Assembly (NCBI RefSeq): GCF_014652635.1
Contig: NZ_BMZE01000002.1
Location: 849,562 to 913,561 of the forward strand
Length of the DNA stretch: 64,000 nucleotides
Origin: Devosia pacifica
Lineage (GTDB): Bacteria > Pseudomonadota > Alphaproteobacteria > Rhizobiales > Devosiaceae
Direction: 5' to 3'
In this document: positions 40,999 through 48,154 of the stretch, in pieces
How the letters are laid out: each line of letters starts with the position of its first letter
Position numbering within the stretch: position 1 is the first letter of the stretch
The notes under the pieces: generated by a model
The model's database searches: none
Told to the model about the DNA's origin: nothing
Seen by the model: the letters and a program-made list of their open reading frames with translations, nothing else
Program-made: the position numbers and the translations under genes

Positions 40999-41224
40999 TT
41001 TATTTTGGGAAAGTAATTTGAGGATAATTAGGAGTATTGTAGATCATCAATTGAGTTCTGTTTTTATTTAATTTTGCGGCTCAAGGGATTTACTCATGGG
41101 GGATTTCGGGGCTGCGCTAAGCCGGCGCAATGCAGGTTAAGGCCTTCCTCCTTTGTCGCACGTTTAGGAACGTGCTTGCTGAGTGGCTGTTGAGGTGCCG
41201 CTATCACCCGAGAGGACCCAGCAC
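40999..41224. other. AT-rich intergenic stretch before the Mn catalase gene
   Basis: The 335-base gap between the small proline-rich gene (start 40889) and the catalase gene holds the palindromic promoter, then about 90 bases (41000-41090) with unusually high A/T for this chromosome, including runs such as tttttatttaatttt. The remainder returns to normal composition. It probably contains the catalase promoter. I see no further gene; a run of frames across it has no coding character. Confidence 0.5.
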
Positions 41225-42052
41225 ATGTTTCACCACTCTTCCAAGCTCCAGTACGAAGTGCGCGTCGATAAGCCAAATCCGCAGTTTGCCAACCACCTGC
41301 AGCAGGCCATCGGCGGCATTGAAGGCGAAATCCGCGTTGCGATGCAGTACTTCTTTCAGGCGATGGGCGCCCGCGGCGACGCGAAATATCGCGACATGCT
41401 GATGATGACGGCGACTGAAGAACTGTCCCATATCGAGTTTCTCGGCCACGCCGTTGCACTGAATCTCGAAGGGGCTCCGGCCAACATTCAGGAGAAGGCC
41501 GCAGAGGACCCGGTGGTCAATGCCATCCTCAGCGGCGCCAACCCGCGGCACATCTTGTCTTCGGGCCTGTCGGCGATGCCGGTGAATGCCAATGGCGTGC
41601 CGTTCGACATGAGCCATGTCTATGCCACGGGCAATCTCGGCGCCGACATGCTGGCCAATGTCACGGCGGAAGCAGGTGGGCGCGTGCTGGCGAGCCGGCT
41701 CTACAACATGACGGACGATGCCGGCATGAAGGACATGCTGTCCTTCCTGATCGCGCGCGACACCATGCACCAGCAGCAATGGCTGGCGGTGATCGAGGAA
41801 CTCGGGGGCATGGAAAAGCAATTGCCGATCCCGAACTCCACGCCAACGGAGAACGAGGCCACCGAGCACTCGTACTACTTCCTCAACACCTCACTCGACG
41901 AGCCGACGCCAGAGGGGCGTTGGACCTCCGGCAAGTCGCTCGACGGCCGCAGCGAGTTTTCGGTGGTCGACAAGGTCAAGCCGCTGGGACAGAAGCCGGA
42001 CCTGGGCAAGGCGCGGCCGGACTCGGGCGCGCAGAACGAGCAGATCGGCTAG
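41225..42052 (+). CDS. Manganese catalase
   Basis: This 275-residue non-heme catalase splits hydrogen peroxide at a dimanganese centre. The metal ligands are visible in two helices: GIEGEIRVAMQYFFQAM (Glu) and TATEELSHIEFLGHAV (Glu, His), and again in AEAGGRVLASRLYNMTDD and RDTMHQQQW. The N-terminal MFHHSSKLQYEVRVDKPNPQFA is typical. The ATG at 41225 has GAGAGGA upstream. The gene has its own strong terminator. Such enzymes are often stress- or desiccation-induced. Confidence 0.94.
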   Translation: MFHHSSKLQYEVRVDKPNPQFANHLQQAIGGIEGEIRVAMQYFFQAMGARGDAKYRDMLMMTATEELSHIEFLGHAVALNLEGAPANIQEKAAEDPVVNAILSGANPRHILSSGLSAMPVNANGVPFDMSHVYATGNLGADMLANVTAEAGGRVLASRLYNMTDDAGMKDMLSFLIARDTMHQQQWLAVIEELGGMEKQLPIPNSTPTENEATEHSYYFLNTSLDEPTPEGRWTSGKSLDGRSEFSVVDKVKPLGQKPDLGKARPDSGAQNEQIG

Positions 42053-42062
42053 GCCGAATTTC

Positions 42063-42095
42063 AATGGCTCCCGCCATGGCGGGAGCCATTCTTTT
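42063..42095 (+). terminator. Intrinsic terminator of the Mn catalase gene
   Basis: A perfect 14-bp inverted repeat (aatggctcccgcca, then its complement) is followed by ctttt. It starts 10 bases after the catalase stop. Its end overlaps the stop codon of the convergent nuclease-like gene. Confidence 0.85.
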
Positions 42096-42657
42096 ACCCA
42101 TCGCGGCCTGTATGTGTGGCGCCTGGGGTATCCTTCTTGATGGACGACTTCATTCCAGCCCCTTGGCGGGCATGCGCCCGCCACAACTTTCGGCGCGCAT
42201 CCGCCGGCTCGAGGTCTGCGTACTTGCCACCAGAGAATTTCGGCCAGTCGAGCGCAAGGCCATTGCTCACGAGTTCTGCCGCAAGGTCGCGTCCATCGGG
42301 CAGAAAACACTGCGCCACCACCCGGTCATAAGACTGTTCGGGTCTGAGGTGTGCGGTGATCTGTTGGCCCCTGCACAGTTCCACCAAAGCCCATTTAGAG
42401 CGCTTGCCCCATGGATGGTCGAGTTCTGGGGCATCGATTCCGGCGAGCCGAATACGGACATTATCGATGATGATTGTATCGCCATCGATGACCCAACATG
42501 GCCCCTTCAGGGTGAGGGGCGTAGCCGCCTGGCGGGGCTGCGGTCTCGGCCTCGGACGTGATGGTGCGCGGTATGGCCGCATGGGGGTAGGGGCCGGTTG
42601 CGAGGCGGAGGATCGGCGCGGGAAGAAGACCCGTATCAGTAACCGAAACAGATTCAT
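42094..42657 (-). CDS. Thermonuclease-like (SNase) protein
   Basis: This 187-residue protein has a short N-terminal hydrophobic/basic anchor (MNLFRLLIRVFFPRR), a Pro/Arg-rich linker and an SNase (OB-fold) domain. Family motifs are VIDGDTIIIDNVRIRLAGIDAPEL, the Asp/Arg active-site loop and YDRVVAQCF. The ATG at 42657 follows AGGGGA. Function could be nuclease or nucleic-acid binding. Another SNase-like gene lies at 48286-49095. Its neighbour transcribed in the opposite sense is the Mn catalase. Confidence 0.85.
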   Translation of the reverse strand: MNLFRLLIRVFFPRRSSASQPAPTPMRPYRAPSRPRPRPQPRQAATPLTLKGPCWVIDGDTIIIDNVRIRLAGIDAPELDHPWGKRSKWALVELCRGQQITAHLRPEQSYDRVVAQCFLPDGRDLAAELVSNGLALDWPKFSGGKYADLEPADARRKLWRAHARQGAGMKSSIKKDTPGATHTGRDG

Positions 42658-42914
42658 GAATTCCCCTATGCAACCGGCGCAACGCAACTTCCTCAGCCGC
42701 AGTCTCGCCCAGATCTTCGAAGTCTGGAAGCGGTGCAATTCTTTGAGGATTGATGACAGTTAACGAGGATGCGGTATTCGCTGCGGCGATAATTTATGCA
42801 CGGCTTGAATGCCCTCGAACGCTTTGACTTCACCAGGCGACGCTTCCGAGCTTTTCAGGAACCCAGCGCAAGGTCCGGCGTTTTTCGCGAGACTGAACAA
42901 TATCAAAGGGTTGA

Positions 42915-43322
42915 ATGATGAAAGTCCTTCTAAGCACCGCTCTTGCCGGCCTTCTTGCTGCAGCGCCAGTGGCGATGGCACAGGATGCGAACAGCGCTAT
43001 CGGCTATGTGACGCCGGAGACGACGGACTTCGTTTTCTCCGAGCTCGAAGGTGAGGATGTCGACAACCTTCAGGGCGAAGAGATCGGCGAGATTCACGAC
43101 ATCATCGTGCGCGATGGCACGACCGTGACCGCTGTGGTGATCAGCGTCGGCGGGTTTCTCGGAATCGGCGAATCCTATGTCGCGGTCGATCCGGCTTCGC
43201 TGACGATCGAGCAGGAAGATCCCGATGACGACGACGTGGACTGGGAAGTGACGCTGGACATCGACCGGGCCAGCCTAGAGGCGGCACCGAAGTTTGAATA
43301 TGAGGGGCGCTGGGACGACTAA
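42915..43322 (+). CDS. Exported PRC-barrel domain protein
   Basis: This 135-residue protein has a signal peptide (cleavage near AMAQD) and a PRC-barrel domain: GEEIGEIHDIIVRDGTTVTAVVISVGGFLGIGESYVAVD. It ends with a very acidic segment (EDPDDDDVDWEV). Exported PRC-barrel proteins of this type are common in Hyphomicrobiales and have no known role. AAAGGG lies upstream of the ATG pair at 42915 and 42918. A terminator follows. Confidence 0.85.
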   Translation: MMKVLLSTALAGLLAAAPVAMAQDANSAIGYVTPETTDFVFSELEGEDVDNLQGEEIGEIHDIIVRDGTTVTAVVISVGGFLGIGESYVAVDPASLTIEQEDPDDDDVDWEVTLDIDRASLEAAPKFEYEGRWDD

Positions 43323-43394: not shown

Positions 43395-43471
43395 TGGTGA
43401 TCCCGGCGGGATTCGAACCCACGACCCTCAGATTAGGAATCTGATGCTCTATCCTGCTGAGCTACGGGACC
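43395..43471 (-). tRNA. tRNA-Arg (anticodon CCT)
   Basis: Read on the minus strand, the sequence forms a full cloverleaf: acceptor GGTCCCG with CGGGATC (one G-U pair), D arm GCTCAGCAGGATAGAGC, anticodon stem TCAGA/TCTGA with loop TTCCTAA, T arm GTGGGTTCGAATCCCGC, and a genome-encoded CCA end. The anticodon CCT reads AGG. Length is 77 bases. Immediately beyond it lie the unknown genes of the S24-led cassette. Confidence 0.97.
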
Positions 43472-43522
43472 ACGCGATGCCCTCAATACCAGAGCATGAG
43501 CGGCTGGCAAAGACCTGAACAG

Positions 43523-44236
43523 TCAATGCATGAGCCGGTCGATGCCCGCCTCGTCCTGCCAATGGGGCGGGACCGGCAACAGCAGGCGGCGTTTGAGCGC
43601 GCGGATGCGGTCCTGAGCAGACTCGACCTCCCAGATATGCGGGGCCAGTTGCGGGAGCGGCACACCATCATCAAGAGCGCTCTGCATGTCATCAAACAGT
43701 TGAGCAATCCGATCGCGTTCGCTTTCAAGAAGCGTATACACGGCCTTGTCGCGTTGCTTGAGGTCGCGCAGGCGGGCCTGGTGTTCTGCACGCTCCCACG
43801 CCTTTTGATCGAGTGTCTGCGCCAGCCTTCCATCGACAAGAGCGGGAACACTGTGCACCAGCACGTCGTCGGAAGCGAAGGCTGCCGTCAAACGATCAAG
43901 GCTGAACTCGTTCTCGAAATCGCCGGCCAGTTCGTCCGCTATGCGGTCAAGCACCAGTGCGCTCAGCGCTTCTGCGTCCATGTAAGGGTCGCTGCCGAGG
44001 CCATCATAGAGAATGAAGAGCGCCTTATGCCTGATATAGGCGTAGAACAGGTCTTCGCGGTGTTCGTCGCGCGCCGCAGGCAGCTTGTTGACCCGAATCG
44101 ACATGGCCTGGCTCAAATGCCGTTCGGCCTGGCCGCGAACATAGGCAGAGGCGCCTTCAGGACTGCGCCGATGCAGGCCCGCCAGATCAGGAAGCGTCGG
44201 CAGCAGTCGACGCCGCTTCGGCCATGGCCATTTCAT
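43523..44236 (-). CDS. Hypothetical protein, third gene of the S24-led cassette
   Basis: This 237-residue, highly charged and probably helical protein starts MKWPWPKRRRLLPTLPDLAGLHRRSPEG and has no signal peptide or membrane segment. Recognisable runs are LSALVLDRIADELAGDFENEFSLDRLTAAF and the long helix AWERAEHQARLRDLKQRDKAVYTLLESERDRIAQL. I do not recognise the family. It starts 52 bases after the proline-rich gene, and a nested inverted repeat exactly fills that gap up to its ATG. No ribosome binding site is visible. Its 3' end is close to tRNA-Arg. Confidence 0.65.
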   Translation of the reverse strand: MKWPWPKRRRLLPTLPDLAGLHRRSPEGASAYVRGQAERHLSQAMSIRVNKLPAARDEHREDLFYAYIRHKALFILYDGLGSDPYMDAEALSALVLDRIADELAGDFENEFSLDRLTAAFASDDVLVHSVPALVDGRLAQTLDQKAWERAEHQARLRDLKQRDKAVYTLLESERDRIAQLFDDMQSALDDGVPLPQLAPHIWEVESAQDRIRALKRRLLLPVPPHWQDEAGIDRLMH

Positions 44237-44287
44237 GTTGCACCCAGCGGGCTACTGGCGGGCAGTAGCACTATGGCCGCGTGCAAC
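44237..44287. repeat. Nested inverted repeats filling the gap before the third cassette gene
   Basis: Outer arms gttgcac (44237-44243) and gtgcaac (44281-44287) pair, gcgg (44247-44250) pairs with ccgc (44277-44280), and ctactg (44252-44257) pairs with cagtag (44263-44268). In RNA on the minus strand this would fold directly before the ATG of the gene at 44236 and could hide the start region. It has no T-run. Confidence 0.7.
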
Positions 44288-44288
44288 A

Positions 44289-45314
44289 TTATCCATTCCC
44301 CTCCAGGCGGACCGCGCGGGCCTTCGTCACGGCATCGGCCAGTGTGTAGCGGGTACGGCTAACATAATCGGGCTCGAGATCCTCGCCCTCCTGATCAGCC
44401 TCCCACTGACCGCGCCGATTCAGCAGATACCCCTCATAGCGCACGACCCAGGCGTTATTGCCGCGCCACTCGACAAAAATCCGGTCCTTGACGCAAAAGC
44501 TGCGTGTCATCAGCAGCAGCCCGGTCAGTTGCTCGTTAACCCCGGTCAGGCGCTTCAGCTGCGCCTGCAGGTCAAGCGACTGCGCTTCGGAACTGCGCCA
44601 CTGGTTGAACCAGCGCTCCATCTGCAACCAGCTCTGATCCCGCTTTTCGCGCAACAGCCTGATGGTGGCCGCCGCTTCGCGCAGCACCTGGCTGGTGGCA
44701 GAGCGTTCATAGACATGCTCGGGGTGGCTCTCGACGAACAGCAGCGTCGCCTCGACCCTGCCGAGCGTGCCATCGATCATGTCCGGTTGCACGCCGCCCT
44801 TTTGCTGCGCCACCGCCTTGGCGAACTCGCCATCGCCATGCAGAATTTGCTCTGCCGAGGGCGCATCCCGGCGCGGCGGAGGGCCCGCCGCAGCATGGCC
44901 CGACGGGCGCCCGGCTGAAGCAGGTGGCGGCGCGATAGACGGAGCGGGGTGCTCTGCGGCCTGCGAGAAGGGTTCGAGATCTCCGGTCAGGGCCGCTTCA
45001 ACGGCGGCCATTGCCGCTTCAAAGACGTCATCCCCTGCAGGAGTTGCGGGAGGTTTCTCGCTGGGGAATCGAAACGGTGGCGGCTCTGGTGGAGGGGGTG
45101 CAGAAAAAGTCTCGGCAGCGAATGCTGCGGCGAACTCGTCTGGCGCTTCGGTTTCCTCGACCTCTTCCGAGAGGTCTGGTGCGCGCTCGTCCTCGGGCTC
45201 AGCTTGCGCGGCGCCGGGGCGCGGTTGCGCGCCCTCTGACTCCGCGGCCGCCTCGATCAGCGCGTCGATGCCGGCCAGGTCGTCGTCTAGCCGCTTGCCG
45301 TTCTCACCGCTCAT
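44289..45314 (-). CDS. Hypothetical acidic/proline-rich protein with coiled coil, second cassette gene
   Basis: This 341-residue protein begins with an acidic, disordered half rich in Ala, Pro and Glu (DDLAGIDALIEAAAES, later PPPPEPPPFRFPSEKPP). A helical core follows, predicted as coiled coil around EAAATIRLLREKRDQSWLQMERWF and QLKRLTGVNEQL, and a C-terminal region near DYVSRTRYTLADAVTKARAVRLEG. The Walker motifs and signal peptide are absent. I do not recognise the family. AGGAAGG lies 8 bases upstream of the ATG. It is the middle gene, 69 bases after the S24-domain gene. Confidence 0.65.
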   Translation of the reverse strand: MSGENGKRLDDDLAGIDALIEAAAESEGAQPRPGAAQAEPEDERAPDLSEEVEETEAPDEFAAAFAAETFSAPPPPEPPPFRFPSEKPPATPAGDDVFEAAMAAVEAALTGDLEPFSQAAEHPAPSIAPPPASAGRPSGHAAAGPPPRRDAPSAEQILHGDGEFAKAVAQQKGGVQPDMIDGTLGRVEATLLFVESHPEHVYERSATSQVLREAAATIRLLREKRDQSWLQMERWFNQWRSSEAQSLDLQAQLKRLTGVNEQLTGLLLMTRSFCVKDRIFVEWRGNNAWVVRYEGYLLNRRGQWEADQEGEDLEPDYVSRTRYTLADAVTKARAVRLEGNG

Positions 45315-45383
45315 CGCGTCGCCTTCCTGATAGGGCCGGTGACGCTGATTGATGAAACCCGGGCTGAAGCTGAAGGCGCGCGG

Positions 45384-46613
45384 TCAGGATACATGTCCGA
45401 ACTTGCGCAGGACGCGGCCGACCACCTGGATCTCATCGAGATAGAGGTGCCGCGGTTCGTATTTCGGGTTGTCCGAGATCACCTGGACCATCGGGAACTT
45501 GTCATCGGCGTTGGCGATTACCTCCAGCCGCTTGACCACGATGCCGCCGAACGCGTCATTGAGAGCGTAAATGCCATCGGGCGATGGCAGGCGGTGCCGC
45601 GTGTCGATAACGGCCACGTCACCATCGAGGAGTGTCGGCACCATCGAATCGCCCTGGATCGGTACGAGCGCGATGTTTGTCGGCGGTACGCCGCCAAGTG
45701 CCATAAGGATGACCGGCGGGACGCGCCAATAATCGGTGACCTCGCCGGTGCCATTGGCATCCTTGCGCGCCGGGGGGCCGCTTGCACCGGATAGCGCCTC
45801 GCCAAGCATTGTCAGGCCATCGTCATCCTGCCCCTGGTGGTCGGCTCCATCTGCTGCCGTCACCGCGGTCTCGTCGTCCGGCGCCTCTTCCGGGTCACCG
45901 AACAGCTCCGCCTCGATAGCGGAATGAAAATCGGGCTGCGGATCGTGCCGGGGCTGTTGCGCAGGTTGTCGCGCCGCCGGCTCGGGCGCTCGCGAGATAC
46001 TGCGCGGATCAATGCGCGGCTGCGGCTCGATACGCGGTGCGGCGTCAGCAGCGCTTGTTTCTGGTGCGGGTGGCTCGGGCTCTATGCTGGGGGCAGGGGC
46101 TGCAGCCGGTGGGGGCGCTGCCTTTTGCACTGGGGCTGCAGGTGGTGCCGCGGCCTGCCGTCTTGCCTCTGGCTCTCGGAGGCGCGGCGGGGCGGGGCGC
46201 TTTTCTGGCGCACGGCGCGATCGCACCGGCGGGTCCGGCGCATCCGTGCCGACACGGTCCTGACGAAAATGCAGCCGCCAAACCGCAAGGAAGGCCCGCT
46301 CGAGCTCGCGTTTTCCCGAGTGGCGCAGAAGGTAAGCCACCTGATTGACAGGGTAGGTGGACGGCTTCTCCCCGAATGTGAACCAGCGATCGAGGCCGGC
46401 ATCGACGCGGCTGATCTGGGTCAGAAGCTCGTCGCCATCTGCCTTGAGCCCGGTTTCCGCCAGAGTGTCGACAGCGTCCGATTGGCGAGCCTGTTCCCGC
46501 AATGCCTGGGCTGCGCCAGGTGTAAGCGGCGGCGTGTCCCGGAGGCGATAGATGACCGCAAACAGGGCATTGATCGCTGCCTCGGAAACATGGCTGGTGG
46601 CAGTCGCACTCAT
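45384..46613 (-). CDS. S24 peptidase (LexA/CI C-terminal-like) protein with unknown N-terminal domain
   Basis: This 409-residue protein has an N-terminal helical domain of unknown type (residues 1 to about 120), a Pro/Ala/Gln-rich linker (about 121-290) and a C-terminal S24 domain. The S24 catalytic Ser is in QGDSMVPTLLDGD (Ser323) and the Lys in VVKRLEV (Lys361). These motifs are those of LexA and phage repressors, which cut themselves when bound to RecA. I see no helix-turn-helix in the N-terminal domain. The ATG at 46613 has no clear Shine-Dalgarno sequence; it overlaps the stop of a short leader ORF (ATGA), which suggests coupling. A TTG at 46673 would lengthen it by 20 residues. Confidence 0.8.
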   Translation of the reverse strand: MSATATSHVSEAAINALFAVIYRLRDTPPLTPGAAQALREQARQSDAVDTLAETGLKADGDELLTQISRVDAGLDRWFTFGEKPSTYPVNQVAYLLRHSGKRELERAFLAVWRLHFRQDRVGTDAPDPPVRSRRAPEKRPAPPRLREPEARRQAAAPPAAPVQKAAPPPAAAPAPSIEPEPPAPETSAADAAPRIEPQPRIDPRSISRAPEPAARQPAQQPRHDPQPDFHSAIEAELFGDPEEAPDDETAVTAADGADHQGQDDDGLTMLGEALSGASGPPARKDANGTGEVTDYWRVPPVILMALGGVPPTNIALVPIQGDSMVPTLLDGDVAVIDTRHRLPSPDGIYALNDAFGGIVVKRLEVIANADDKFPMVQVISDNPKYEPRHLYLDEIQVVGRVLRKFGHVS

Positions 46614-46720
46614 GCGTCGCGCCCATCGGTTCGGAAATGGCGTGAGACTGCCAGCGGTGCCGCGGCCCGGCAATGCGGCGAGATCTGCTTGCGCATATGT
46701 GTGCGACGATGCGTTCGCAT
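46610..46720 (-). CDS. 36-residue leader ORF overlapping the S24 gene start
   Basis: It starts at ATG 46720 behind a perfect AGGAGG, 4 bases of spacing (tagt), and ends in TGA overlapping the S24 gene's ATG (ATGA at 46610-46613). The product is rich in Arg and His (starts MRTHRRTHMRKQISPHCR) and resembles no known family. It probably serves as a leader that carries ribosomes to the S24 gene, which has no ribosome binding site of its own. Alternatively the ATG is the real start and the frame between it and the S24 gene contains a frameshift; the S24 frame differs from it. Confidence 0.55.
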   Translation of the reverse strand: MRTHRRTHMRKQISPHCRAAAPLAVSRHFRTDGRDA

Positions 46721-47002
46721 ACTACCTCCTGGTCTTGCGGGTAACACTAAGAACAGGATTTCTCCAGTCAGAAATAGCGCGTGGCGTTGCGGAATGCTCT
46801 CTGCAAAGCCTGTCGGTGATCAAATGAATGCCGGTCACAGTTCAGCACTACATTTTCAAAACGACAACCCATACGTCCTCCTACATCTGACTTAGCGGTC
46901 TTCGATCGCTTCAGGTTTTACCGGACGAGACCATGTTTGGTAACAAAATCCACACGTTAAACCCTTATGCCCACTCCCGGTTCAACGGGCAAGGAAGCGT
47001 TG
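46721..47002. other. Divergent intergenic region between the S24 cassette and the diguanylate cyclase gene
   Basis: This region of 280 bases holds the Shine-Dalgarno sequence of the leader ORF on the minus strand and presumably both promoters. The plus-strand end has the AAGGAAG of the diguanylate cyclase gene. A GTTC-N5-GTTA pair (minus strand) resembles the alphaproteobacterial SOS box but has the wrong spacing. I see no further gene in it. Confidence 0.5.
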
Positions 47003-48154
47003 ATGCTGTTTGACCAAATATCGTTACTGCTTGCCCTGGGCTTTTGCGCTGGAGCGCTTGGCGTGACCTTGCTGGGAGCTTGGTACGCGTCGCGTTCGGA
47101 CATCTTCCTGCTGTATCTGGGTGTCGGGGTGATGTTGCTGGTCATCGGCATTGCGGTGTTCAGCAATTACGCGGAACATTACTCGGCAGAGCGCCATATG
47201 GTGGCGTTCGTGATGCTGATCCTCGGTTTCTCGGCGATATGGGGCAGCGCGCGACGCTTTATGGGACGCAGGAGCGTTCTGCGTTTCACTCTCGTCGTCG
47301 CAACGCTTGGCACCTTCTCGGCGGCGCCATTCTTTATCGCCGGGTTTGATGGCTTGGGGGCCATCATCGCCAATCTCTTGTGCATGGCATTTCAGATCGG
47401 CACCGCGTACGAATTCTGGCGCGGCCGGCGTGAGGCTCCTGTGCCCATGCTCGGCGTGGGCGCGCTCTATCTCGTCAATGCCACCTCTTTCGGTTTGTGC
47501 GCACTGGCTCTGATGCTGGAAGGCGACATGGTGCTGGCCGGGGCGCCGTCGAACCGGGCGGAAGATCTAAACGCGCTGATCTCGATTTTTTCGATGAGCG
47601 GCATCGGCGCATTGTCGCTTGCGCTCAATCAGACGCGGCTCGCCCGGCGGCACCGCGATGAATCGCTGACGGACGCCTTGACCGGACTGCTCAACCGCCG
47701 TGCGCTGTTTCAGCGCCATGAAGGAGTGCTCGAAAGCGGGACGGTGGTCCTTATCTGCGATCTCGACCTGTTCAAGGCCGTTAACGACAGGTTCGGCCAT
47801 GCAGCCGGCGATGTCGTCTTGATGGAGTTTGCTGAGACGGCGCGTGCCTGCCTTGCCAATGCCAAGGATGCGGTCAGCGCCCGCCTCGGCGGCGAAGAAT
47901 TCGCATTCGTCTATAACGCGGACAATACTCCACAGGCTGTCAAAATCGCCGAGCGTGTGCGCGAAGCGGCCGCCGCTCAGACCGTTCAGGCGGGCGAGCA
48001 CATTATTCGTTTCACGATCAGTGCCGGCCTCGCCATCGCCAAGGATGGCGAACGCTTCGAAACCGTTCTGGACCGGGCGGACGCTGCACTTTATAGCGCC
48101 AAACGCTCCGGCCGGAATCAAGTCTCGCTTGGGACGTTGCACCTCGTGGCCTAA
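47003..48154 (+). CDS. Membrane-bound diguanylate cyclase (GGDEF)
   Basis: This 383-residue protein has about six membrane helices in residues 1-205, which form a probable sensor module, and a C-terminal GGDEF domain. Substrate and metal residues are intact: LTGLLNRR, the DLDLFKAVNDRFGHAAGD block and GGEEF at 296-300. It makes c-di-GMP. The inhibitory I-site normally sits five residues before GGEEF as RxxD; here that position reads AKDA, so product inhibition is not expected. The ATG at 47003 has AAGGAAG upstream; an in-frame ATG at 46967 has no ribosome binding site. Confidence 0.9.
   Translation: MLFDQISLLLALGFCAGALGVTLLGAWYASRSDIFLLYLGVGVMLLVIGIAVFSNYAEHYSAERHMVAFVMLILGFSAIWGSARRFMGRRSVLRFTLVVATLGTFSAAPFFIAGFDGLGAIIANLLCMAFQIGTAYEFWRGRREAPVPMLGVGALYLVNATSFGLCALALMLEGDMVLAGAPSNRAEDLNALISIFSMSGIGALSLALNQTRLARRHRDESLTDALTGLLNRRALFQRHEGVLESGTVVLICDLDLFKAVNDRFGHAAGDVVLMEFAETARACLANAKDAVSARLGGEEFAFVYNADNTPQAVKIAERVREAAAAQTVQAGEHIIRFTISAGLAIAKDGERFETVLDRADAALYSAKRSGRNQVSLGTLHLVA

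What the first reader, a model, noticed from the sequence alone, without database searches (positions are those of the whole stretch)
43395..46720. Cassette beside tRNA-Arg: S24 protease-domain protein, disordered coiled-coil protein and unknown basic protein
Three consecutive minus-strand genes have no recognisable family outside the S24 domain. The first protein joins an unknown helical N-terminal domain by a 170-residue Pro/Ala/Gln linker to a LexA/CI-type domain with Ser323 and Lys361. There is no helix-turn-helix, so a classical repressor role is not supported. Its partners are an acidic disordered protein with a coiled coil and a charged helical protein. The group could be a damage-triggered switch in which RecA-dependent self-cleavage releases the N-terminal domain. 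The three genes sit against a tRNA-Arg, a typical integration site.
Basis: partly seen in the sequence, partly recalled or inferred. Interest (0 to 1): 0.65.

Follow-up and report, generated by a model that had tools for sequence, protein, structure and literature searches.

The report
Rewired phage-repressor fragment in orphan cassette
Beside a bacterial tRNA gene sits a small cassette whose lead gene joins a piece of a virus's on/off switch, with its usual self-cutting site apparently worn away, to a helper domain normally found in DNA-end-binding proteins; its job is unknown but it is probably not the damage-triggered switch first proposed.

Summary
The three genes are real, intact and accessory: they are missing between tRNA-Arg(CCT) and its neighbours in 9 of 9 syntenic congener stretches. 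Gene A (409 aa) is a chimera. Its S24 domain nests inside phage CI-type repressors (sister to L094, 99/97; 49-58% identity). Its N-terminal domain is not a helix-turn-helix but the helical tail module of HIRAN proteins (E 6e-5). Ser323, Lys361 and 34 of 37 clade-invariant positions are kept, but the cleavage motif of 22 of 22 closest phage relatives is missing; Gln260-Gly261 aligns with their scissile bond. One Ala-Ser pair (277-278) at the spacing of a neighbouring clade's site remains as a possible substitute. No SOS box lies upstream; the genome's lexA has two. RecA-triggered self-cleavage is therefore less likely than proposed. I favour a non-self-cleaving dimeric adaptor with B and C as probable partners (inferred). 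B has only a weak C-terminal match to small phage/plasmid proteins; C is an orphan and acidic, not basic. New variant of a known kind.

The parts
46610..46720 (-). possible 36-aa leader reading frame, AGGAGG upstream, stop overlaps start codon of A (ATGA)
   Evidence: read directly; conservation not tested
45384..46613 (-). gene A: chimeric S24 protein, 409 aa
46254..46613 (-). A residues 1-120: helical domain homologous to the C-terminal module of HIRAN proteins
   Evidence: model pLDDT 78.5, five helices
45744..46253 (-). A residues 121-290: Pro/Ala/acidic linker
45831..45836 (-). Gln260-Gly261, aligned with the Ala/Gly-Gly scissile bond of the closest phage CI relatives
45780..45785 (-). 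Ala277-Ser278, the only Ala-Ser/Ala-Gly pair in residues 191-322, 46 before Ser323: possible non-canonical site
45387..45743 (-). A residues 291-409: S24 domain of phage CI type; Ser323 codon 45647..45645, Lys361 codon 45533..45531
44289..45314 (-). gene B: 341 aa, acidic low-complexity N-terminal half (net charge -23 over residues 1-160)
44292..44519 (-). B residues 266-341: small domain weakly similar to short phage and plasmid proteins
   Evidence: best E 2e-3
43523..44236 (-). gene C: 237 aa orphan, all-helical model (pLDDT 74, single sequence)
43395..43471 (-). tRNA-Arg (CCT); its 5' end faces gene C

Best explanation
Gene A is a chimera. A phage CI-type repressor has lost its helix-turn-helix and carries in its place the helical module that normally ends HIRAN (DNA-end-binding) proteins, joined by a 170-residue flexible linker (shown by homology). 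Its S24 domain keeps the fold signature and the Ser-Lys dyad but not the cleavage motif of its own clade (shown by sequence). The most likely working (inferred) is a non-self-cleaving dimeric adaptor: the S24 domain pairs the molecules, as CI and LexA C-terminal domains do (recalled), and the flexible arms present two helical docking domains to a partner, most simply the co-oriented products B and/or C or a DNA-repair or defence complex of the kind that HIRAN proteins accompany. B (acidic low-complexity half, then a small domain shared with phage/plasmid proteins) would be the downstream adaptor and C a helical subunit. No sign of LexA control was found.
For: S24 domain nested in phage CI repressors, sister to L094 at 99/97; a profile of 22 phage CIs matches A residues 290-408 (E 3.7e-57 for this one sequence); 34 of 37 invariant columns kept, five of which my QGDSM filter fixed beforehand. 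N-domain: E 6e-5 and 7e-5 to two HIRAN-protein tails, four further Rhodobacterales loci, and a distant protein with Pfam HIRAN over cut-off (L176, E 3.7e-7). Cleavage motif 22 of 22 versus absent in A; alignment over A261-279 to the segment behind the phage site: mean score reached by 0 of 300 shuffles, fixing Gln260 at P1. No SOS box in 46601-47000, two at own lexA. HIRAN proteins with this module lie next to a calcineurin-type phosphoesterase and an AAA_27 ATPase (SbcD- and SbcC-like by my naming) in L024, look alike in L084 and L085, and beside a multiubiquitin/ThiF operon in L023; in L083 and L086 the upstream side is cut off.
Against: Ser323 and Lys361 are kept at about 50% divergence, which a mere scaffold would not need. 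Ala277-Ser278 could serve as a cleavage site: five repressors of a neighbouring clade (L007, L149, L158, L161, L167) have Ala-Ser at 45, and about 17 further repressors there show no site by my pattern either, so absence of a recognisable motif is not proof of loss. Dimerisation, partner binding and co-transcription of A, B and C were not tested. Only one genome was found with the set, so conserved linkage cannot be shown. The N-domain model matched no fold well (best Z 3.2).
Confidence: 0.42

Rival explanations
1. Trans-acting peptidase: the intact Ser-Lys dyad cuts a partner (B, C or a foreign protein) instead of A's own linker, with the helical domain choosing the target.
For: Dyad and 34 of 37 invariant positions kept while the clade's cis site is missing. 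Leu-Ala-Gly triplets occur in B and C (read). Trans cleavage by UmuD/LexA C-terminal domains is recalled, not from a call.
Against: Leu-Ala-Gly triplets are expected in Ala-rich proteins; I read no DVTAG-like context in B or C (no scan run); no experimental support.
Confidence: 0.18
2. Damage switch as first proposed: RecA filaments trigger self-cleavage of A and release the N-domain, at a shifted or non-canonical bond such as Ala277-Ser278.
For: S24 domain with Ser323/Lys361; flexible linker; Ala277-Ser278 at 46 residues, near the Ala-Ser at 45 of a neighbouring clade.
Against: Motif of its own clade absent against 22 of 22 relatives, Gln-Gly at the aligned place, acidic residues where relatives have Gly; Ala277-Ser278 lacks the Val/Ile two residues before it; no SOS box.
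Confidence: 0.16
3. Decoy against temperate phages: the free CI-type C-terminal domain forms mixed dimers with the CI repressor of incoming phages of the same subfamily and spoils lysogeny or immunity.
For: The S24 domain belongs to one CI subfamily carried by many viral contigs and has no DNA-binding domain, like a dominant-negative fragment.
Against: The three other S24 matches of the own genome are not of that subfamily; no hetero-dimer evidence; does not use the N-domain, B or C.
Confidence: 0.07
4. Recent, functionless chimera left in a variable locus and on its way to decay.
For: No second genome with C, with B or with the A architecture among those searched, changed cleavage site, orphan neighbours.
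Against: Three intact frames with ordinary third-codon GC; near-complete conservation of the S24 core.
Confidence: 0.17

Closest known systems
CI-type repressors of phages (viral contigs L094-L127)
   Same: S24 domain 49-58% identical, Ser-Lys dyad, 34 of 37 invariant positions
   Different: A has no helix-turn-helix, a much longer linker and not their cleavage motif
HIRAN-domain proteins with a helical C-terminal module (L023, L024, L083-L086, L176)
   Same: the helical module, 26-33% identical, shared E-x-x-F-L-x-x-W-x-x-H-F core
   Different: A has no HIRAN domain; the module is N-terminal and an S24 domain follows
UmuD and UmuD-like proteins (recalled)
   Same: S24 domain without helix-turn-helix
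   Different: no Cys-Gly or Ala-Gly in the linker of A, no umuC seen next to it, long N-terminal part of other origin
Co-opted phage repressors such as FddR of Francisella (PMC13148647, passages read)
   Same: phage-derived S24 protein outside a prophage
   Different: FddR keeps HTH, Ala-Gly site and DNA-damage control

Membership tests
LexA/CI self-cleaving S24 regulators | S24 domain | tested here: met
   Pfam PF00717 44.6 bits over cut-off 23.3; profile of 22 phage CIs E 3.7e-57
LexA/CI self-cleaving S24 regulators | Ser-Lys catalytic dyad | tested here: met
   Ser323, Lys361
[quoted passage not shown]
   motif 0 in A against 22 of 22 closest relatives; Gln260-Gly261 aligned. An Ala-Ser at 277 remains possible
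LexA/CI self-cleaving S24 regulators | N-terminal helix-turn-helix | tested here: not met
   no HTH family in A in Pfam, PHROGs or NCBIfam N-terminal to S24; N-domain homologous to HIRAN-protein tails
LexA/CI self-cleaving S24 regulators | RecA-stimulated cleavage | not testable with these tools
   needs protein
UmuD | S24 without HTH, Cys-Gly site, linked umuC | tested here: not met
   no Cys-Gly/Ala-Gly in about residues 201-300; the genes beside A are B and a GGDEF gene
HIRAN proteins | HIRAN domain | tested here: not met
   no HIRAN match in A, whereas L176 scores 30.3 bits
HIRAN proteins | helical C-terminal module of this subgroup | tested here: met
tRNA-integrated element | direct repeat of the tRNA 3' end, an integrase, element on the 3' side | tested here: inconclusive
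   no such repeat of 18 bases or more in 40-52 kb, shorter or more distant ones not excluded; cassette on the 5' side; no integrase among four neighbouring proteins scanned
known anti-phage defence proteins | match in PADLOC-DB | tested here: not met
   0 families for A, B, C at E 1

The most novel reading that the evidence does not exclude
A is a naturally uncleavable phage-repressor C-terminal domain put to work as an anti-phage device: it keeps an active peptidase or dimer face that recognises CI repressors of incoming temperate phages in trans (mixed dimers or cutting) and, through the HIRAN-associated domain, ties that recognition to a DNA-end or repair/defence complex formed with B and C.
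Probability: 0.06. Interest if true: 0.8.

Novelty: new variant of a known kind. Interest (0 to 1): 0.42.

Why it matters
S24 proteins are textbook self-cleaving switches. A chimera that keeps the active site and 34 of 37 core positions, but has neither the DNA-binding domain nor the cleavage motif of its clade, would be a natural separation of function: it makes directly testable whether the phage-repressor C-terminal domain has uses beyond self-cleavage (dimer scaffold, RecA binding, cutting in trans). It also points to a helical module, named by no Pfam model here, shared with HIRAN proteins that sit beside SbcCD-like and bacterial ubiquitin-like operons.

Tried and rejected
RecA-dependent self-cleavage switch: moved behind other readings for lack of its clade's cleavage motif and of an SOS box; the check brought up Ala277-Ser278 and motif-less repressors in a neighbouring clade, so I raised this reading from 0.12 to 0.16 and lowered my own from 0.45 to 0.42 and the decay reading from 0.18 to 0.17. 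tRNA 3'-end integration: no repeat of 18 bases or more; none of the 20 families shown of 37 lies on the tRNA; wrong side. Borders of the insertion: alignment of the intergenic gaps of G012, G017, G003 and G018 with the window gave no usable junction (eight comparisons; best 2 of 200 shuffles, two more at 10 and 11 of 200). Homologues of C: 1 of 61 (own); 4 of 136 family genomes at E 0.01, the three others partial at 0.002-0.008, two with a TGA inside; 2 of 397 order genomes at E 5e-4, the other (L082) a frame antisense to a more plausible gene, taken as chance; none in phages, plasmids or, by short peptide patterns, viral contigs. Homologues of B: 2 of 61, the other a 67-residue stretch with a stop; C-terminal profile 1 of 201 (own); none in viral contigs by patterns. 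Whole A: 12 of 61, the 11 others only in the S24 part. N-domain profile: 2 of 385 class, 3 of 136 family at E 0.01 of which two weak inside very long frames, 2 of 397 order; none in phages or, by patterns, viral contigs. N-domain, B and C in the 80 viral CI loci: none at E 0.01. Fold searches: C best PDB Z 7.4 over 70 residues of two helices, nothing at E 0.001 in the viral library; N-domain best Z 3.2, viral nothing at 0.001. A TPR-like look of its last two helices is only my reading; Pfam at E 10 gave no family for it. Hairpin between B and C: no better than shuffles (z -0.69). Alignment A6 of whole A put the HIRAN rows on the S24 domain and was not used. Rows dropped: of the 34 loci L094-L127, 22 went into the profile and motif count; six gave identical C-terminal 150 residues and six had a wrong frame picked by my script. 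Literature: searches showed by title no paper on such an architecture; only open-licence PMC text is held.
Full report
What is there. Three minus-strand genes, A (46613..45384), B (45314..44289) and C (44236..43523), lie between a divergent GGDEF gene (46967..48154) and tRNA-Arg(CCT) (43471..43395). They are intact and have ordinary third-codon GC. A short frame of 36 codons with a strong ribosome-binding sequence ends on the start codon of A. Outside the S24 domain of A no library names any of the three.

They are accessory. To the right of the cassette lie a nuclease gene (SN2, Pfam SNase) and an M48 peptidase gene. Of the 22 congeners searched with the peptidase I fetched 11 stretches. In 9 of them (G012, G017, G019, G015, G010, G008, G007, G003, G018) tRNA-Arg(CCT) stands next to SN2-M48 with roughly 0.25-2.0 kb between, and A, B, C and the GGDEF gene give no hit at E 1e-3; in G006 the order differs and in G002 no tRNA lay in the stretch; these two have no A, B, C or GGDEF hit either. 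In most of the other congeners the best tRNA match and the peptidase are not close, so this neighbourhood is not universal in the genus. In the window the gap is 4.7 kb. The cassette is thus an insertion, or a set kept in one species, at a variable site. It lies on the 5' side of the tRNA, I saw no repeat of the tRNA end, and could not define the borders.

The S24 domain of A comes from phage repressors. A scan of viral contigs with a five-row S24 alignment gave 440 relatives, of which the best 80 were kept; the top 34 (L094-L127) are 49-58% identical to A. From these I took 22 distinct frames (six duplicates and six loci with a wrong frame were dropped; L127 is cut by its contig end). Their profile matches A from residue 290 to 408 at E 3.7e-57, an E-value for this one sequence. 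In a tree of 56 S24 domains A is sister to the repressor of contig L094 with support 99/97, inside phage CI-type repressors and away from the three other S24 proteins of the own genome; A's branch (0.54) is among the long ones, and the program warns of long branches, chiefly L001, L002, L004 and L014. A keeps 34 of 37 positions that are invariant in 21 phage relatives, the catalytic pair among them; five of the 37 (QGDSM) were fixed by my filter.

The cleavage motif of its clade is gone. [quoted passage not shown] All 22 of 22 relatives have D[ILV][TR][AG]G[ML]G[AGS]GG, with the presumed scissile [AG]-G pair 54-58 residues before the serine; the pattern was written from these rows. A has no such motif and no Ala-Gly, Cys-Gly or Gly-Gly pair between about residues 201 and 300; its only V-x-A-G is V70-D-A-G73 inside the N-domain. 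Homology does run a little beyond the profile match: residues 261-279 of A align without gaps to the stretch just behind the phage cleavage site; the mean score over 22 relatives was reached by 0 of 300 shuffles, the best single one by 5 of 500, L094 alone by 13 of 2000. This puts Gln260-Gly261 on the scissile bond, Ala-Asp-His on the preceding Asp-Val-Thr, and Gln-Asp-Asp-Asp on Met-Gly-Gly-Gly.

Against that reading. A wider look shows that five repressors of a neighbouring clade (L007, L149, L158, L161, L167) have Ala-Ser, 45 residues before the serine, and that about 17 more repressors there show no site by my pattern. A has exactly one Ala-Ser or Ala-Gly pair in residues 191-322, Ala277-Ser278, 46 before Ser323. 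It lacks the Val/Ile two residues earlier that those sites have, and lies elsewhere than the site of A's own sister, but cleavage there cannot be excluded. I therefore infer, and do not claim to have shown, that self-cleavage is lost.

No sign of SOS control. The alphaproteobacterial box GTTCN7GTTC (recalled) is present twice, 24-63 bp before the start of lexA of this genome (L001, named from its sequence by memory) but not in 46601-47000, also with relaxed patterns; with one mismatch the nearest of 56 matches in the window (44 expected by chance) are at 45399 and 47083.

The N-terminal domain. Residues 3-118 are homologous to the C-terminal part of two plasmid-borne proteins annotated as HIRAN proteins (28.5-29.1%, E 6e-5 and 7e-5), to four more in Rhodobacterales (the four of this close group that I scanned score below Pfam's HIRAN cut-off), to a protein of another family of the same order with HIRAN over cut-off (L176, E 3.7e-7) and to the tail of a protein without recognised HIRAN domain (L092). 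The joint alignment keeps I21, L63, Q66, V70, G81, P84, A93, L96, E105, F108, L109, W112, H115, F116 and G122 of A. AlphaFold2 gives five helices, pLDDT 78.5, pTM 0.72 from five rows; no fold match stands out. So the place of a repressor's helix-turn-helix is taken by the partner module of DNA-end-binding proteins (the DNA binding of eukaryotic HIRAN domains is cited in PMC11090510, which calls the prokaryotic ones uncharacterised; passages). HIRAN proteins with this module stand beside a phosphoesterase and an AAA_27 ATPase, SbcD- and SbcC-like by my naming, in L024, with a same-looking pair in L084 and L085, and beside a multiubiquitin/ThiF operon in L023. This hints at repair or defence but says nothing of A directly.

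B and C. B has an acidic, low-complexity first half (net -23 over 160 residues) and a C-terminal stretch similar to short proteins of Virus Rctr197k, Gordonia phages and actinobacterial plasmids (E 2e-3 to 7e-2, two further records at 0.6 and 4; alignment): a lead, not a proof. C has no relative that I trust. A single-sequence AlphaFold2 model is all-helical with one helix of 53 residues (pLDDT 74, pTM 0.53, other models 55-67); PDB matches reach Z 7.4 only on a two-helix stretch, which is common for long helices. C is acidic overall.

Mechanism. Shown: chimeric origin, kept S24 core and dyad, missing clade motif, no HTH and no SOS box found, accessory status. Inferred: that A dimerises through its S24 domain, does not cut itself, and offers its helical domains to partners among B, C or a repair/defence complex. 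Next come cutting in trans, a functionless chimera and the RecA switch, close together.

Known or new. By title I found no paper with this architecture in five searches of open-licence PMC text. S24 proteins that depart from the rule are known, such as IrvR, which cuts itself without RecA (PMC7101444, passages), and co-opted phage repressors such as FddR (PMC13148647, passages), but both have a DNA-binding domain and an Ala-Gly site. I class A as a new variant of a known kind.

Noticed in passing
46610-46720 (-): 36-codon frame with AGGAGG ribosome-binding sequence; its TGA overlaps the ATG of gene A, so translation may be coupled.
   Followed up: partly
44235-44289 (-): Nine-base inverted repeat ATGTTGCAC/GTGCAACAT spans the B-C junction and includes the start codon of C; the fold is no better than shuffles.
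   Followed up: yes
41183-43322: On the 3' side of tRNA-Arg: Mn-catalase, a nuclease-like frame (by similarity to SN2 only) and a PRC-barrel gene, none of them found in the 11 congener stretches fetched (one weak hit of the nuclease frame falls on SN2), so both sides of this tRNA look variable.
   Followed up: partly
46967-48154 (+): Divergent GGDEF gene next to A, also without a hit at this locus in the 9 syntenic congeners; may have come with the cassette.
   Followed up: partly
L023 6840-8468; L024 7359-8465; L084 7362-8471; L085 7299-8471: A group of HIRAN proteins with the same helical tail next to SbcCD-like genes or a multiubiquitin/ThiF/DUF6527 operon, on plasmids and contigs of Rhodobacterales.
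   Followed up: partly
L075 and L076, tRNA to SN2 gap: Two congeners (G010, G008) carry a 324 and a 312 aa membrane-transporter-like frame in the same gap (naming from memory).
   Followed up: no
L130, L136-L138, L140, L143 and kin: A clade of phage CI-like repressors in which my pattern finds no Ala-Gly-type cleavage site; their way of induction may be unusual.
   Followed up: no
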